Shown here piece by piece: positions 58,642-64,000 of a stretch of DNA of 64,000 nucleotides. The translations under genes and the position numbers were made by a program. Source of the DNA: Ilyomonas limi (GTDB lineage Bacteria > Bacteroidota > Bacteroidia > Chitinophagales > Chitinophagaceae); contig NZ_SZQL01000001.1 of assembly GCF_005233845.1 (NCBI RefSeq), positions 545,304-609,303 on the forward strand, given 5' to 3'. A model generated the notes under the pieces. The model searched no databases. It saw only the letters and a program-made list of their open reading frames with translations, and had not been told where the DNA came from. Numbering within the stretch: position 1 is the first letter of the stretch; each line of letters begins with the position of its first letter.

Positions 58642-59964
58642 TCAGCTATTCAGCAACAACTCAATGAGTTTATACTTAAAATACAAATCATATTTTACCG
58701 TGGTTGCTTTTACCTGTTGTGCATACAACTGGTCTTTTGCAAGCATTAGTTCCAGCGAAGAAATATATCCTAATTTGTGTCTTTCTTCAAAAGCATTGTA
58801 TGCTAACTCGCCTTGCTGTAAGGATTCAGCCTGCAATAAATATTTCTGTTTCGCAGCTATAAAATCACTCAGTAACTGCTGCGTGTTTTTTACAATTTCA
58901 TTTTCAACCTCCTGCATCGTTAGCTTTGCATTGGCAAGGTTTATTTTTTCTTTCTCTACTGCCGCCCTGTTCTGGTATTTATTAAACAAAGGCACCTGCA
59001 GCAATACACCAACCGTTTTGCCAAAATTGTTATTTAATTGTTCATTCAAACGAATGTGGCTGCCACTGAGGTTTCTATCATTTAAGTTATAATTTGAAAA
59101 CACATTTCCGGTAAGCGACATAGTAGGAATGAGGCTTCCTTTGGCAGTCTTTACCTTCATTGCTGCTGCGCTTGCATTATACATGCTCTCCAGCAATGCA
59201 GGATGATGCTTTAAAACTTTTTCTAATACCTCAGCAACATCAAATGCTGTATGCGCAATAGTACTTATCTCGTTCGAATCAATGTCTTTAACAGTAAATG
59301 ATACATTGTTGTTGATACCGATTAAGTATTTCAATTCATTTATTGTAGCAAGCAAGTTATTTTGTGCTTCCACTATATCGGCCTGCTCACTTTTGCAACG
59401 CGTATTAATAGTATAATAGTCACTCTTGCTAAGTTTTCCAACATTTATTTTCTCCTGTACAACATCCAGTTCGTTTTGTGTATGTTGATAGTTATTTTCG
59501 ATAGTAGCAATCTGCTCTCTGCTATACAATACCTTCGCATAGGCAACACTAATGGCAGCAAAGGTTTCCAGCTCTGCTTCCTTATAAGCTTGCTCATCTG
59601 CCCGTATTTTATATAAGCTACTCTTTATTGCATGGAATGCACTAAAGCCTGAAAAAATATTAAGTTGTAAAGTCACATCAAATTCGCCACCACTAAAATT
59701 TTCGCGAACAAAATTGTTTGTTACCGGATCAATATTTTTACCGGAAGAAAAAATATGTTCTGCATTGGCATATACAGCCGGCAGCAGGTTGTAAGTTGCC
59801 GCTTTCTTATCTATGTAACTGTTTTGAATATCGTTTTTACTTTTTTGAAGCGCAATATTATTGCTCTGTGCAGCAGCAAAACAATCTTCTAAAGAATATG
59901 ATTGCTGTGCAATTCCCTTCAGGCAGAAAAGGCTAATTAATATAAATGGAGCACAAAACTTCAT
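58642..59964 (-). CDS. TolC-family outer-membrane channel protein
   Basis: 440 residues with signal peptide (MKFCAPFILISLFCLKGIAQ). YSLEDCFAAAQSNNIALQKS is the usual TolC-type N-terminal helix, repeated in the second half by DVAEVLEKVLKHHPALLESM and VGVLLQVPLFNKYQNRAAVE. Long helices with few prolines and short beta hairpins fit the two-repeat TolC architecture. It overlaps the stop of the HlyD gene by 4 bases (ATGA), indicating translational coupling. It forms the outer-membrane exit of the export system encoded upstream. Confidence 0.92.
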   Translation of the reverse strand: MKFCAPFILISLFCLKGIAQQSYSLEDCFAAAQSNNIALQKSKNDIQNSYIDKKAATYNLLPAVYANAEHIFSSGKNIDPVTNNFVRENFSGGEFDVTLQLNIFSGFSAFHAIKSSLYKIRADEQAYKEAELETFAAISVAYAKVLYSREQIATIENNYQHTQNELDVVQEKINVGKLSKSDYYTINTRCKSEQADIVEAQNNLLATINELKYLIGINNNVSFTVKDIDSNEISTIAHTAFDVAEVLEKVLKHHPALLESMYNASAAAMKVKTAKGSLIPTMSLTGNVFSNYNLNDRNLSGSHIRLNEQLNNNFGKTVGVLLQVPLFNKYQNRAAVEKEKINLANAKLTMQEVENEIVKNTQQLLSDFIAAKQKYLLQAESLQQGELAYNAFEERHKLGYISSLELMLAKDQLYAQQVKATTVKYDLYFKYKLIELLLNS

Positions 59965-61205
59965 GATGGCTTCTTGTCAAAATCTTTGAATATTTTTTTA
60001 ATAAAGTATCGGAATAACACAAGCTTGTCTGTAATGATTTCACCAGATACGTTATACCCTGATTTTAATTGAAAGTTTTTTGCATTGTTTAATTTGATGA
60101 AAGCATAGAACTTATCATTTTCTTTTCTAGCGGAGATATAGGTAACATTGCCTTGTATAATTCCGTATTCGAGGTGATAATAGGCATCTAACTGGAGATG
60201 GGCGCGCATTGTTGTTTTTACATATTGCATATCATTTTCTGGCAATACTACTTTTGCATAAAAGTCATTCTTGTCGGGCGAAATACTCAGCAATAAATCA
60301 TTCTTATTGATGAGGTTGGTGGTTTGTTTGGAAGTAAAAATAAAATTTACAGTGCCATTTGTATTGGCAATCAGATACTGTTTAGCTAATTCGTGACTTA
60401 ATAACTCCAGGTTCTCGTTTGCCTTGATTAATTCATTTTCTAAATCAATCTGTAACTGACGCAAGCTTTGGTTATTTTCTTCCAATGCTATATTTTTTAA
60501 TGCCAATTGGTGTTGTTTCGACGCAAACTCATTGGCACTTAATTGTTGTTGAACCTTTTGTTTTTGTAGTTCGCTTTTTATTATATTTACCGATTCCCGT
60601 ATATCATTCACCAAATCCTTACTAGCATTGTATTCTATTTTACTCAACATATCTTTCTGATATAAAATGGAATCAGCCCTGTTTCTTTCTAAAGCATTAT
60701 TAAGCTTTTGTTGCTGCAGCTTGTATTGTGCATCTAAAGTAAGTATGTTGTTTTGTATATTTTGTACATCTACATTTCTATCCGAACTATTAATACTATT
60801 TTCAACACCGGTCTCGCTTTTCTTTTTGCTTAATGCAGCAAGTAATGATTGTACAGATGCCAGCTTCTTTTCCAGGTATTCTCTTTCTGCCTTTTGTGCT
60901 GTGTAAGCTCTTGAATTGGCTTCGTTATAAATCACCATCAAAGTATCACCTGTCCTAACTTTTTGCCCTTCACGTACATACATCTTTGAAAGCTGTGCTT
61001 CAAAAGGTGCCTTTAAATTGAGTTGCGGGCTCTGCGAGATAATTTCACCTTGTGCGAAGGAAACGGTATCATTGATGCGAACAGTAAACAATAAACTCAT
61101 ACTTATTAACACAAACAGCAACAATAACCGGAAGAACCAAAGTATAAATCTTTGTGTCTTTACCGGGTAATCTTCACCATATAATATTGCGTAATCAGTG
61201 ATCAT
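59961..61205 (-). CDS. HlyD-family membrane fusion protein
   Basis: 414 residues. One N-terminal membrane helix lies at about 21-45 (FILWFFRLLLLFVLISMSLL). A first half lipoyl-type motif is LKAPFEAQLSKMYVREGQKV RTGD-like, followed by a long coiled coil (about residues 95-280, KLASVQSLLAALSKKK ... QQKLNNALERNRADSILYQK) and a second beta region (NTNGTVNFIFTSKQTTNLIN). The C-terminal KLNNAKNFQLKSGYNVSGE is typical. It links an inner-membrane ABC exporter to TolC. It overlaps the ABC gene end by 11 bases and the TolC start by 4, so the three are one operon. Confidence 0.92.
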   Translation of the reverse strand: MITDYAILYGEDYPVKTQRFILWFFRLLLLFVLISMSLLFTVRINDTVSFAQGEIISQSPQLNLKAPFEAQLSKMYVREGQKVRTGDTLMVIYNEANSRAYTAQKAEREYLEKKLASVQSLLAALSKKKSETGVENSINSSDRNVDVQNIQNNILTLDAQYKLQQQKLNNALERNRADSILYQKDMLSKIEYNASKDLVNDIRESVNIIKSELQKQKVQQQLSANEFASKQHQLALKNIALEENNQSLRQLQIDLENELIKANENLELLSHELAKQYLIANTNGTVNFIFTSKQTTNLINKNDLLLSISPDKNDFYAKVVLPENDMQYVKTTMRAHLQLDAYYHLEYGIIQGNVTYISARKENDKFYAFIKLNNAKNFQLKSGYNVSGEIITDKLVLFRYFIKKIFKDFDKKPS

Positions 61206-63654
61206 TTTTCATAAATCTTTTGTTTGTGATATAAATGTTTTCAACAACGCTCCCGTTTGTTAACATGATTGCTTTATCGAAACGTATATTATCAACCGGC
61301 TCGTGAGAAATAATAATGAAAGCACGCGTACTATCCTGGTTAATAAAAGCTTCTATTTTTTCCTTCGATTCTTTGTCAATACCTGATAGCACTTCATCAA
61401 TGATAATGAGTTCTGCATCTGATAACAATGCACGCAGCAATAAAACTTTTTTGCGCTGACCTGTTGAAAGATTTCTCCCGCCTTCTGTAATTACATAATC
61501 AAAACCTTCTGCATTCTTGGATATAAAATCATGAAAACCTATTTGCCTAGAGAGCATTAGAATCTTTAAAACATCAACAGATCTGTTGAATTTGATATTG
61601 AATGACAGCGTATCATTAAATAAGATATCATCGTTACTAATCAATAAAATTTTCTTTCTCAGCGCAGCCTGGTTGTAAAAAATTGCTTTCTCATTATTGA
61701 TATACACATTGCCTGCAGTGGGCGTATAAAGCATGGAGAGTATTTTGCAAAACGTGCTTTTACCTGCGCCGTTGCTGCCTTCCAATCTTATCTTTTCTCC
61801 GTCTGTAATACGAAGATTAAAGTTCTTTAAAACCGGCTTCTGAGGAACATATTCAAAGCCTACATTTTTAAACTGAATATTCTTTAGCCGAAAGTCTTTT
61901 ATTTTATCTTCCTGTTCCATATTTATTTCATTGTTTACATCGGCTTTGGTTGCATCAAAATCAAGATATCTCTTTAAAATAATTTCATTTTCCTGCAGGT
62001 CAAGATTCTCATCCATGATGCTGGTAAGTGAATTAAAAATTCTGCCAGACAACGCGATGAACGTAATGATTTGCCCAACTGAAACAGATTGATTATTTAC
62101 AGAACTAACAGAAAGGAAAGCAAGGATTAATACACTTGCAATAATGATGAGCAAATCTATTACTGAAGAATTTAAAAGACTGATATAGCGAACTTTTTTC
62201 TGCACCTTCATCATGCCTGCAATAGCGGGTTGCATGCGTTGTTGAAAAAGGTATTCGATGTTGAACGATTTTATCACCTGAAGTCCATCAATGTTTTCCA
62301 ACACATTCGAAAACAGCCCCGACTTCTGCATAAAACGACGCTTTTCATTCTCTCTTATCCTAGGTGTAATTACCTTAAACCATATGATAAACAGAATTAT
62401 AATGGCGAGAATAATCAAGCTGATCTGCCAGTTGATGATGAATAAAATAATAAGCGAATACACCGAGATGATACTATCGGTCAATATACTTGTAAAGAAG
62501 CGGGTAAAAAAGGTTTTAAGCATAAGGCTGTCTTTCATACGTTCTGTCAAATCACCCCGATTAAACGCGTGAATATACCTTATCGGATAACTGTTCAGTT
62601 TTCTTACAAATGAAGTAAGAAAATGGCTATCGAAAATATTAGAGAGTTGGATAGAAATAAAACTTTTATATACACGTATTGTCAGCTCGAAAAGTTTGAA
62701 TAAACCTAACCCAACAGCAAATAAAATAACCAGGCTGGTATCATAGCTGGGTAGAATATTATCTATTAATAACTGACTGCTGAAGACAAGCATTTGTGTC
62801 ATAAAAGCAGCAAACAACGCAGCAAAGATATAAATGTACCAAAGCTTCTTGTGCTGTTTCATTTCTCGAAACAATTGTATGTAAGCATTATTGTTTTCGG
62901 ATGCTTTTTTGGAGGTGAATTGTTGTTTATATGTTTTATTATCAATCAATTTTACTGTTAATACCACCGGCGTTCTAACGCTTATTTTATCATCTGCTGC
63001 TTGTAAGGATTTGAATTCGTTTGGAAGCGTATTCAGTTGCAGATTATATAACAAATCCTTCAAAAAACTTACTTCAGCGTCCTTTGAAGCAAAACCAAAA
63101 TTCTCTTTCAGATAAGAAAAATAAGTAAGCTTGTTAGCGACAATTGTTTCGTCCTGTTGTGTAATACTATTGGGTTGAAGATCATACAGGTCCAATTCAT
63201 CTTTAATGAGTTGCTGTAATACTTCTTTGCTGCTCAGCTTATCGTAATAAGCAGTATTGGTATAGGCACGTTGCATAAATTCTGCAACGCTCCACTTCAT
63301 GCGGTTGGCTTCAGCCGGATCAAGCACCAGCAACTTTTTTTCTTCGGTGCCATATATCACTACGTAGTGCAAACCACGTGCATTTTTAACAGGAAGAATA
63401 CAAGGCAAAAAGGCTTCTATCTTTTTTGTATTAAACTTCAATGCATTTAAGTCTAAGAAGTTATAATCCGCTTTAAAGCAATGTTGTTCAAAAAAACTTT
63501 TAATATCCTGCAGCCATGCTCCATTTGCATCCAGTGGAACAGTAGCAGCAATATAATCCCGATCAATATTTACATGATAATAGTTAAATATTGATTTAAT
63601 AACGCTGATTCCGCAATCGTTATATTTTAATTGCTGATCTGATTTTACTGGCAT
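61195..63654 (-). CDS. peptidase-containing ABC exporter (C39 peptidase, membrane domain, ATPase)
   Basis: 819 residues from the Met at 63654 (MPVKSDQQLKYNDCG); earlier in-frame Met codons at 63699 and 63741 are possible but would put the catalytic Cys too far from the N-terminus. The C39 domain has all expected residues: Gln8, Cys14 (QLKYNDCG), His96 (GLHYVVIYG) and Asp112 (LLVLDPAE). About six membrane segments follow (LWYIYIFAALFAAFMTQMLV onwards). The ATPase domain has Walker A EGSNGAGKST, signature LSTGQRKK, Walker B ELIIIDE and the H-loop IIISHE. Such exporters cleave a double-glycine leader and export a peptide. No leader-type precursor is visible inside the window. The 5' end overlaps the kinase gene. 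Confidence 0.9.
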   Translation of the reverse strand: MPVKSDQQLKYNDCGISVIKSIFNYYHVNIDRDYIAATVPLDANGAWLQDIKSFFEQHCFKADYNFLDLNALKFNTKKIEAFLPCILPVKNARGLHYVVIYGTEEKKLLVLDPAEANRMKWSVAEFMQRAYTNTAYYDKLSSKEVLQQLIKDELDLYDLQPNSITQQDETIVANKLTYFSYLKENFGFASKDAEVSFLKDLLYNLQLNTLPNEFKSLQAADDKISVRTPVVLTVKLIDNKTYKQQFTSKKASENNNAYIQLFREMKQHKKLWYIYIFAALFAAFMTQMLVFSSQLLIDNILPSYDTSLVILFAVGLGLFKLFELTIRVYKSFISIQLSNIFDSHFLTSFVRKLNSYPIRYIHAFNRGDLTERMKDSLMLKTFFTRFFTSILTDSIISVYSLIILFIINWQISLIILAIIILFIIWFKVITPRIRENEKRRFMQKSGLFSNVLENIDGLQVIKSFNIEYLFQQRMQPAIAGMMKVQKKVRYISLLNSSVIDLLIIIASVLILAFLSVSSVNNQSVSVGQIITFIALSGRIFNSLTSIMDENLDLQENEIILKRYLDFDATKADVNNEINMEQEDKIKDFRLKNIQFKNVGFEYVPQKPVLKNFNLRITDGEKIRLEGSNGAGKSTFCKILSMLYTPTAGNVYINNEKAIFYNQAALRKKILLISNDDILFNDTLSFNIKFNRSVDVLKILMLSRQIGFHDFISKNAEGFDYVITEGGRNLSTGQRKKVLLLRALLSDAELIIIDEVLSGIDKESKEKIEAFINQDSTRAFIIISHEPVDNIRFDKAIMLTNGSVVENIYITNKRFMKNDH

Positions 63655-64000
63655 TATCCATTCGTTTTTTTGAGATTGCGTTATATAGTTCATGAGCATT
63701 GGCAAACCTTGCTGATGGCTTTTTAGCGACACACATTGCAATGCTATTTTTTAGCCATTCCGGAACTAAGAAACCATATTGTGACTTTGGAGGAAATTCA
63801 ATTGGCTTTTCTTTTATTGCTGTTGCCAGTTCCTCCCACGTTATTCCATTAAAGGGATACGCATCATACAAAAAGGTATACAGCACAACGCCTAACTGAA
63901 AAACATCAGAGGAGAAGTCTGGCTTGCGGGTAAATTTTTTATAGGTTGTTTTTTTTATTCTTTCAGGTGGCATAAAAAAATAAGCACCACCAAAATTTAT
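63620..64000 (-). CDS. serine/threonine protein kinase, C-terminal part only
   Basis: The frame is open to the window edge; the 5' part lies beyond 64000. The visible 126 residues are the end of a Hanks-type kinase: NFGGAYFFMPPER (activation-segment end, the APE-equivalent), then DVFQLGVVLYTFLYDAYPF (subdomain IX), and CVAKKPSARFANAHELYNAI (subdomain XI with its Arg). The protein stops about 15 residues after the kinase fold, so there is no LanC-like or sensor domain behind it. Its 3' end overlaps the start of the C39 exporter, so the two are translated together. Substrate is unknown. Confidence 0.85.
   Translation of the reverse strand: MNFGGAYFFMPPERIKKTTYKKFTRKPDFSSDVFQLGVVLYTFLYDAYPFNGITWEELATAIKEKPIEFPPKSQYGFLVPEWLKNSIAMCVAKKPSARFANAHELYNAISKKRMDNASKIRSAIKI

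What the first reader, a model, noticed from the sequence alone, without database searches (positions are those of the whole stretch)
58642..64000. Kinase-coupled C39 peptide exporter operon
A Ser/Thr kinase gene overlaps a complete C39-peptidase ABC exporter (all four peptidase residues present), which overlaps an HlyD-type protein, which overlaps a TolC-type channel by ATGA. The tight overlaps imply a fixed stoichiometric unit in which a kinase acts on the exported peptide, the exporter or its regulator. The kinase ends right after its fold, so it is not a visible LanL-type lanthipeptide synthetase. No precursor is in the window, so it should be encoded upstream of the kinase. This is the best candidate here for an undescribed peptide modification/export system.
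Basis: partly seen in the sequence, partly recalled or inferred. Interest (0 to 1): 0.65.

Follow-up and report, generated by a model that had tools for sequence, protein, structure and literature searches.

The report
Kinase-modified secreted peptide gene cluster
A bacterium of the Bacteroidota carries a small gene set that appears to make a short threonine- and lysine-rich peptide, add phosphates to it with a kinase that has its own peptide-grabbing domain, then cut it and export it; related sets with very different peptides occur in other Bacteroidota, and I found no description of this kind of set in the papers I could search.

Summary
The kinase is a 400-residue protein. Its N-terminal ~110 residues, modelled on a relative (55% identical), have the fold of a RiPP recognition element (RRE): best solved matches are leader-bound lasso-peptide B1 proteins, PqqD, MccB and TigE. 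The rest is a Hanks-type Ser/Thr kinase with intact catalytic residues. Just upstream, outside the window, lies a 51-residue precursor: double-glycine leader, then alternating Thr and Lys/Arg.

Sixteen such kinase loci were found. A leader-type precursor stands upstream in 15 of 15 testable; C39 directly follows in 13 of 15 testable. Cores differ greatly; 13 of 19 are unusually Ser/Thr-rich and 16 of 19 unusually poor in hydrophobic residues. No HopA1-type lyase or LanC cyclase was detected in the genome.

Best reading: a RiPP pathway in which the RRE holds the leader, the kinase phosphorylates core Ser/Thr, and C39-HlyD-TolC cuts and exports a phosphopeptide. Phosphorylated RiPPs are known (phospeptin, LPP, paeninodin); in eight paper searches I found none with a fused RRE-Hanks kinase. 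Phosphorylation itself is inferred, not shown.

The parts
63620..64000 (-). C-terminal part of the RRE-kinase; the gene runs on beyond the window to position 64822 in window numbering (GTG start; G000:C1:608923-610125, 400 aa: RRE-like domain about residues 1-115, kinase about 118-385)
61195..63654 (-). C39 peptidase-ABC exporter (mechanical ORF runs to 63741 with a TTG start; the ATG at 63654 aligns with the starts of its relatives)
59961..61205 (-). HlyD-type membrane fusion protein
58642..59964 (-). TolC-type outer-membrane channel. The fifth part, the precursor (51 aa), lies outside the window at 64905-65060 in window numbering (L002:10209-10364 -, G000:C1:610208-610363)
   Evidence: precursor:

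Best explanation
This is the enzyme and export part of a RiPP gene cluster whose precursor gene lies just beyond the window. The precursor (leader MLTLEKIMTELKVNAVNEVVGG, core KHGKTKTRTKTKTKTRTRTRTRKHGTKYY) is held by its leader in the RRE domain that is fused to the kinase; the kinase phosphorylates Ser/Thr of the core, probably at several sites; the C39 domain cuts after the GG and the ABC-HlyD-TolC conduit releases the phosphopeptide outside the cell. Shown by sequence or model: gene order, conserved precursor, RRE fold, intact kinase and peptidase residues. Inferred: leader binding, phosphorylation of the core, that the phosphate stays on the final product, and the cleavage site.
For: A GG/AG-leader precursor lies upstream of the kinase in 15 of 15 testable loci. 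Independent leader test: an HMM made without the clade in question finds the precursor at E<0.01 (Z=1000) in 10 of 12 loci (window precursor 2.5e-6), and an HMM made before G811, G912 and G1012 were known gives 3 hits among 444 ORFs, each the ORF just upstream of the kinase. The full HMM hits 0 of 10,438 ORFs in 69 loci of other kinases at E<=0.1. Within the window clade leader codons change mostly synonymously (same/synonymous/non-synonymous: G000 v L053 10/9/3, G000 v L055 9/10/3, L051 v L053 16/6/0). The Thr-Lys/Arg alternation uses all four Thr codons and five Lys/Arg codons, so it is not DNA slippage. RRE fold: Foldseek's first five rows are TbiB1-leader complexes, PqqD and a lasso B1-leader complex, prob 1.00; VIA Z 10.4 TigE (rmsd 3.0, 96 aligned), 9.2 TbiB1 (3.1, 87), 9.1 MccB (2.6, 79). 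Kinase Lys150, Glu166, His-Gly-Asp242, Asn247, Asp260 invariant in 11 of 11 aligned. C39 directly downstream in 13 of 15 testable loci, HlyD after it in 13 of 13, TolC in 9 of 11 testable. Median Ser+Thr of 19 cores 0.28 against 0.12 in long ORFs of the same loci. Kinase-domain tree: 14 RRE-kinases on one side of a branch (98/93), next to kinase-LanC fusions.
Against: No product has been measured. The window protein has no Pfam PqqD match; Foldseek's best E is only 1.0e-3; the RRE call rests on a model of a relative (L051). Leave-clade-out HMMs find the G129 precursors only weakly (0.025, 0.14) and miss the G400 precursor, so these two rest on position and a visible GG. L049 and G400 have kinase and precursor but no C39 within the locus. 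Six of 19 cores are not clearly Ser/Thr-rich, L047_c and G400 (0.10) being below background. G400 has DFD for DFG, and the Gly-rich loop is degenerate in the aligned kinases. Several cores of other loci hold Cys, which would suit further modification there. L050's N-terminal domain was not seen (contig end).
Confidence: 0.7

Rival explanations
1. Phosphorylation is only a step: a lyase encoded elsewhere eliminates phosphate to give dehydro-residues or, with Cys, thioether rings, making this an unusual lanthipeptide system.
For: The nearest kinases in the tree are kinase-LanC fusions; LanL and LanKC models match the kinase part; cores of L047, L052, G400, G912, G1012 and G044 hold Cys.
Against: HopA1 (PF17914) and LanC (PF05147) give 0 matches at E<=1 in G000; no lyase-like gene stands in the conserved unit; the window-clade cores have no Cys. 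A LanKC/LanL-type or OspF-type lyase was not searched for in the genome.
Confidence: 0.12
2. The kinase is a self-protection or storage step: it masks a cationic antimicrobial peptide with phosphate inside the cell and the phosphate is lost during or after export.
For: The window-clade core is strongly cationic (13 Lys/Arg among 29 residues); kinase and exporter are coupled.
Against: The poly-Ser cores of G394 and L048 have no Lys/Arg/His, so masking of charge cannot be general; I did not search for a phosphatase or an immunity gene as such.
Confidence: 0.09
3. The RRE is a sensor: leader binding switches on the kinase, which phosphorylates the exporter or a regulator, and the peptide is exported unmodified.
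For: Genes are adjacent and often overlapping; nothing here excludes it; a sigma/anti-sigma pair lies nearby in the window clade.
Against: RREs in the solved matches serve peptide-modifying enzymes (general knowledge of those proteins); two loci keep kinase and precursor without the exporter; the sigma/anti-sigma genes were detected only in the window clade.
Confidence: 0.06

Closest known systems
Linear polyphosphorylated peptides (LPP), Bacillota (PMC13381572; passages read)
   Same: RiPP clusters with an RRE, a kinase and an exporter that give a linear phosphorylated peptide.
   Different: LPP has an HprK-like kinase, a separate RRE protein, a signal-peptidase-like leader peptidase and an MsbA-like pump, and the kinase puts several phosphates on one Ser. 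Here: Hanks-type kinase with fused RRE, GG leader, C39 exporter with HlyD and TolC, many Ser/Thr in the core.
Phospeptin, Ca. Eudoremicrobium malaspinii (PMC9259500; passages read)
   Same: A single maturase gives a linear poly-phosphorylated peptide (Thr by NMR) without elimination.
   Different: The maturase is a lanthipeptide-synthetase dehydration domain with mutated elimination residues, compared with CylM in the paper; not a Hanks-type kinase with an RRE.
Class III, IV and V lanthipeptide kinases (LanKC, LanL, LanK; PMC10604976 and PMC9486802; passages read)
   Same: A kinase acts on Ser/Thr of a leader-bearing peptide; NCBIfam LanL and LanKC models match the kinase part.
   Different: No lyase or cyclase seen here, and an RRE is present; PMC10604976 states that the class II-V enzymes contain no identifiable RRE.
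Paeninodin-type phosphorylated lasso peptides (as described in PMC13381572; the original paper was not read)
   Same: A kinase decorates a RiPP whose pathway uses an RRE.
   Different: HprK-like kinase, lasso cyclase, separate RRE.
Salivaricin 10, a phosphorylated lantibiotic (PMC13219514; passages read)
   Same: Stable phosphothreonine on a secreted peptide.
   Different: A lantibiotic; the passages I saw do not name a separate kinase.
GG-leader peptides exported by C39-ABC/HlyD/TolC (class II microcins and the like; recalled)
   Same: Same leader type and same export machinery.
   Different: A dedicated RRE-kinase stands between precursor and exporter.

Membership tests
RiPP biosynthetic cluster (general) | Encoded precursor with conserved leader and variable core next to the enzyme gene | tested here: met
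   weak for G129 and by position only for G400
RiPP biosynthetic cluster (general) | Enzyme modifies the core | not testable with these tools
   Only intact catalytic residues shown
RiPP recognition element (RRE) | PqqD-like fold, strands followed by three helices | tested here: met
   Model of L051 residues 1-114, pLDDT 81.8, 8-row alignment; top matches are RREs and PqqD
RiPP recognition element (RRE) | Pfam PF05402 above its curated cut-off | tested here: not met
   Matches at E<=1 in 6 of 11 members; the one N-terminal domain scored alone with a match has 22.0 bits against 23.4; none for the window protein. A sequence criterion, weaker than the fold
RiPP recognition element (RRE) | Binds the leader | not testable with these tools
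   No complex was modelled
Class III/IV lanthipeptide synthetase (LanKC, LanL) | Lyase, kinase and cyclase in one protein | tested here: not met
   400 aa; LanL 87.9 of 650 bits and LanKC 79.3 of 575 bits, both on the kinase region only
Class V lanthipeptide system | HopA1-type lyase partner (LanY) | tested here: not met
   PF17914: 0 matches in G000 at E<=1
Linear polyphosphorylated peptides (LPP) | HprK-like kinase and discrete RRE | tested here: not met
   The kinase is PF00069 with a fused N-terminal domain
Phospeptin | Lanthipeptide-synthetase-type dehydration domain as sole maturase | tested here: not met
   No such domain among the Pfam matches of the kinase
C39 double-glycine peptide exporter | C39 domain with Gln, Cys, His, Asp fused to an ABC exporter, and a GG-type leader in the substrate | tested here: met

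The most novel reading that the evidence does not exclude
A separate RiPP class in which an RRE-guided Hanks-type kinase turns low-complexity Thr-Lys, Gly-Lys-Ser or poly-Ser peptides into secreted, densely phosphorylated polyelectrolytes. With alternating phospho-Thr and Lys/Arg the window product would be a zwitterionic strand with all phosphates on one face, closer in kind to extracellular mineral- or matrix-binding phosphopeptides (silaffins; a recalled comparison) than to a folded bacteriocin.
Probability: 0.25. Interest if true: 0.87.

Novelty: new variant of a known kind. Interest (0 to 1): 0.72.

Why it matters
If true, the protein-kinase fold, known in RiPP pathways as the first half of lanthionine formation, also serves as a stand-alone peptide decorator that brings its own leader-binding domain. 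The unit is minimal (one precursor, one enzyme, one exporter), so kinase specificity, leader dependence and the role of phosphate can be tested by expressing two genes. The leader is conserved while the core ranges from Thr-Lys repeats to poly-Ser, which makes the enzyme a candidate tool for putting phosphates on chosen peptides, and asks what secreted phosphopeptides do for Bacteroidota.

Tried and rejected
Rejected: kinase as part of an unrelated sensor system (N-terminal domain is RRE-like). LanL/LanKC membership. Class V-like system in this genome. DNA slippage as the origin of the Thr-Lys repeat (codons). The CHAT/TPR protein, the 330-aa protein and the anti-sigma/sigma pair upstream as part of the unit: detected by tblastn at E<=1e-5 only in L051, L053 and L055 among 15 loci searched. 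Viral contigs: 7 stretches matched a pattern, none a relative. Plasmids: 215 records with a match, all under 60% identity, one covering 80% or more, a kinase-LanC fusion. Rfam: no family at gathering score in L002; one tRNA and nothing else in ten loci.

Surveys and their limits. Order: 396 genomes, 6 matches at E<=1e-20, 5 of them with the N-terminal part. Family: 394 genomes, 10 at E<=1e-22, 7 with the N-terminal part, one of these (G974) in two pieces. Class: 395 genomes, 5 at E<=1e-45, only G000 with the N-terminal part. Phylum: 395 genomes, 128 at E<=1e-25; in the rows listed (the list was cut) only G000 aligns from before profile position 50. My simple terminator detector also fires on up to 83 of 200 shuffled sequences and missed L048, so I rely on the folding energies.

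Dropped or partial rows: L050 has no N-terminal domain or upstream sequence (contig end) and is counted only for C39, HlyD and TolC. G129 ends 108 nt after the kinase and is not counted for C39. L053 and L047 end within or just after HlyD and are not counted for TolC. L055 has a kinase in two frames and was left out of A3 and of the tree. The fifth L047 precursor is not among the 19 cores. Core start differs by one residue between for G394, L048 and L052. In one search I folded 121-nt parts of the L048, L052 and L047 gaps, chosen by eye; G129, G400 and G811 were not folded.

Literature claim: searches (PMC open-licence text only). The words 'kinase' and 'phospho' do not occur in the main texts of PMC7470986 and PMC12710340 (passages read); the latter reports 1,158 Pfam domains fused to RREs in data that I could not open, so an RRE-kinase may be listed there unremarked.
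Full report
WHAT IS THERE. The window ends inside the kinase gene. The window is G000:C1:545304-609303, so the contig could be read on. On the - strand, in order of transcription: precursor (51 aa, G000:C1:610208-610363), kinase (400 aa, GTG start, 608923-610125), C39/ABC exporter, HlyD, TolC. Pfam confirms each protein. The gap between precursor and kinase is 82 nt. The longest reading frame of the precursor has 73 codons; its relatives start at the internal Met of MLTLEK, which gives 51 aa.

THE KINASE. Residues 134-377 match Pkinase with 115.8 bits. In 11 aligned relatives Lys150, Glu166, His240-Gly241-Asp242, Asn247 and Asp260 are invariant, the residues that a working protein kinase needs (recalled); the Gly-rich loop is degenerate. 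The N-terminal part has no Pfam match in the window protein, but PF05402 (PqqD) matches 6 of 11 relatives weakly, E<=1, best 0.00088, and reaches 22.0 bits against a cut-off of 23.4 in the isolated G044 domain. AlphaFold models of the relative L051, as a whole (pLDDT 80.9) and of its residues 1-114 (pLDDT 81.8), show strands followed by three helices. Against the PDB the best Foldseek rows are TbiB1 with its leader, PqqD, and a lasso B1 protein with its leader (prob 1.00, best E 1.0e-3), and VIA-align gives Z 10.4 for TigE, 9.2 for TbiB1 and 9.1 for MccB, with many other RiPP enzymes below them. That those matches are RRE domains is partly in their titles and partly recalled. I read this as a fused RRE.

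THE PRECURSOR FAMILY. Sixteen kinase loci of this family were found: G000, L051, L053, L055, L034 (G044), L043/L046 (G394), L047, L048, L049, L050, L052, L044 (G129), L045/L054 (G400), L168 (G912), L169 (G1012) and L170 (G811). L050 is cut by its contig end. In the other 15 a short ORF with a leader of the type M-[LIV]-[TN]-L-x-x-I-[LIM]-x-[ED]-L...[VI]-V-x-[GA]-G stands upstream of the kinase; G129 and G400 diverge most. L047 has five such ORFs, G129 two. HMM tests: with the clade left out, the precursors of the window clade (4 loci), L034, L043, L048, L049, L047 and L052 are found at E<0.01 (Z=1000), those of G129 only at 0.025 and 0.14, that of G400 not at all. The HMM built from the first 16 leaders then found G811, G912 and G1012 as its only 3 hits among 444 ORFs at E<=1. 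In 69 loci around other kinases it hit none of 10,438 ORFs at E<=0.1; in the two kinase-LanC loci it gave one weak hit, E 0.081.

THE CORES. Window clade: Thr-Lys/Arg repeats with no or almost no hydrophobic residue. G394 and L048: Ser-rich with Glu. G044: Lys then Ser. G400, G129 and G1012: Gly-Lys-Ser. L052 and G400 end in Cys-Pro-rich tails. Of 19 cores, 13 have a Ser+Thr share that at most 5% of equally long background windows reach, 6 do not (L053, G1012, L047_a, L047_b, L047_c, G400); 16 of 19 are as poor in Ala/Val/Ile/Leu/Met/Phe/Trp as at most 5% of windows. The background was long mechanical ORFs of the same loci. The window core codes its 10 Thr with ACA 4, ACC 3, ACG 2, ACT 1, and its Lys/Arg with five codons, so the pattern is kept at protein level. 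Leader codons differ mostly synonymously inside the window clade; between the clade and G811, G912 or G1012 non-synonymous differences are the more numerous.

THE EXPORT SIDE. C39/ABC follows the kinase in 13 of 15 testable loci (not in L049 and G400; G129 cannot be tested), HlyD follows in 13 of 13, and TolC in 9 of 11 testable, not detected in L034 and L050. L049 shares its genome with L048, which has an exporter (titles). Gln, Cys, His and Asp of the peptidase are invariant in 12 of 12 domains aligned. Kinase-C39 spacing varies from overlap (35 nt here, 8 nt in G912) to gaps of 26 and 33 nt.

A HAIRPIN BETWEEN PRECURSOR AND ENZYME. In 11 of 12 gaps folded, a hairpin of unrelated sequence is followed by a T-rich stretch; in 10 of 12 none of 200 shuffles folds as well (L051 3 of 200; L049, which has no visible hairpin-T element, 18 of 200). 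For three long gaps only a part, chosen by eye, was folded. This looks like a leaky terminator that would give more precursor than enzyme, an inference.

RELATIVES AND DISTRIBUTION. In a kinase-domain tree the 14 complete RRE-kinases lie on one side of a branch (98/93), beside two kinase-LanC fusions, from Cytophaga sp. FL35 and Paenibacillus peoriae, and apart from 16 other kinases (100/99); the root is by midpoint and some branches are long. Named carriers: Saprospiraceae, Chitinophagales, Hymenobacter sp. BT770 and unnamed Bacteroidetes. The system is rare: 7 of 394 genomes of the same family, 5 of 396 of the order, G000 alone in 395 of the class.

HOW IT MOST LIKELY WORKS. Leader held by the RRE, core Ser/Thr phosphorylated by the fused kinase, leader cut at GG by C39, phosphopeptide exported through HlyD and TolC. 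No HopA1 or LanC homologue was detected in the genome, which speaks against dehydration or rings, although other lyase types were not searched. Each enzymatic step is inferred from family knowledge.

COMPARISON. Phosphorylated linear RiPPs exist: phospeptin, made by a lanthipeptide-synthetase-type dehydration domain (PMC9259500), and LPPs, made by an HprK-like kinase with a separate RRE (PMC13381572). The class II-V lanthipeptide enzymes are stated to lack an RRE (PMC10604976). The two large RRE surveys do not use the word kinase in their main texts. So the product type would be known, while the enzyme type, precursor family and export set-up appear new: a new variant of a known kind.

Noticed in passing
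L002:10393-10430 (-), upstream of the precursor; also L051, L053, L055, L161, L162, L163: A conserved 5' element (GAA[AC]ACCC, a few bases, then AAARAGTAG) precedes the precursor in 7 of 7 loci aligned. Two of its 3 predicted pairs change on both sides. One match in the own genome, none for the reversed control. Rfam's DUF805b model overlaps it weakly (12.3 bits, cut-off 35.6). Possibly a cis-regulatory RNA.
   Followed up: partly
L002:10805-16279: A 330-aa protein, a CHAT/TPR protein, and an anti-sigma-like and a sigma-factor gene lie beyond the precursor and are detected near it also in L051, L053 and L055, not in the other loci searched.
   Followed up: partly
L047:7753-9810: Five successive precursors with like leaders and different cores, four of them ending in a Trp/Tyr-Cys-rich tail; a diversified peptide array before one kinase.
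   Followed up: no
   Followed up: no
L055:7172-8927: Kinase and C39 of this locus are split over two or more frames: decay or assembly errors; not mended.
   Followed up: no
L044:722-2923: A different C39-type exporter lies about 6 kb upstream of the G129 kinase, 23% identical to the window exporter over its ABC part.
   Followed up: no
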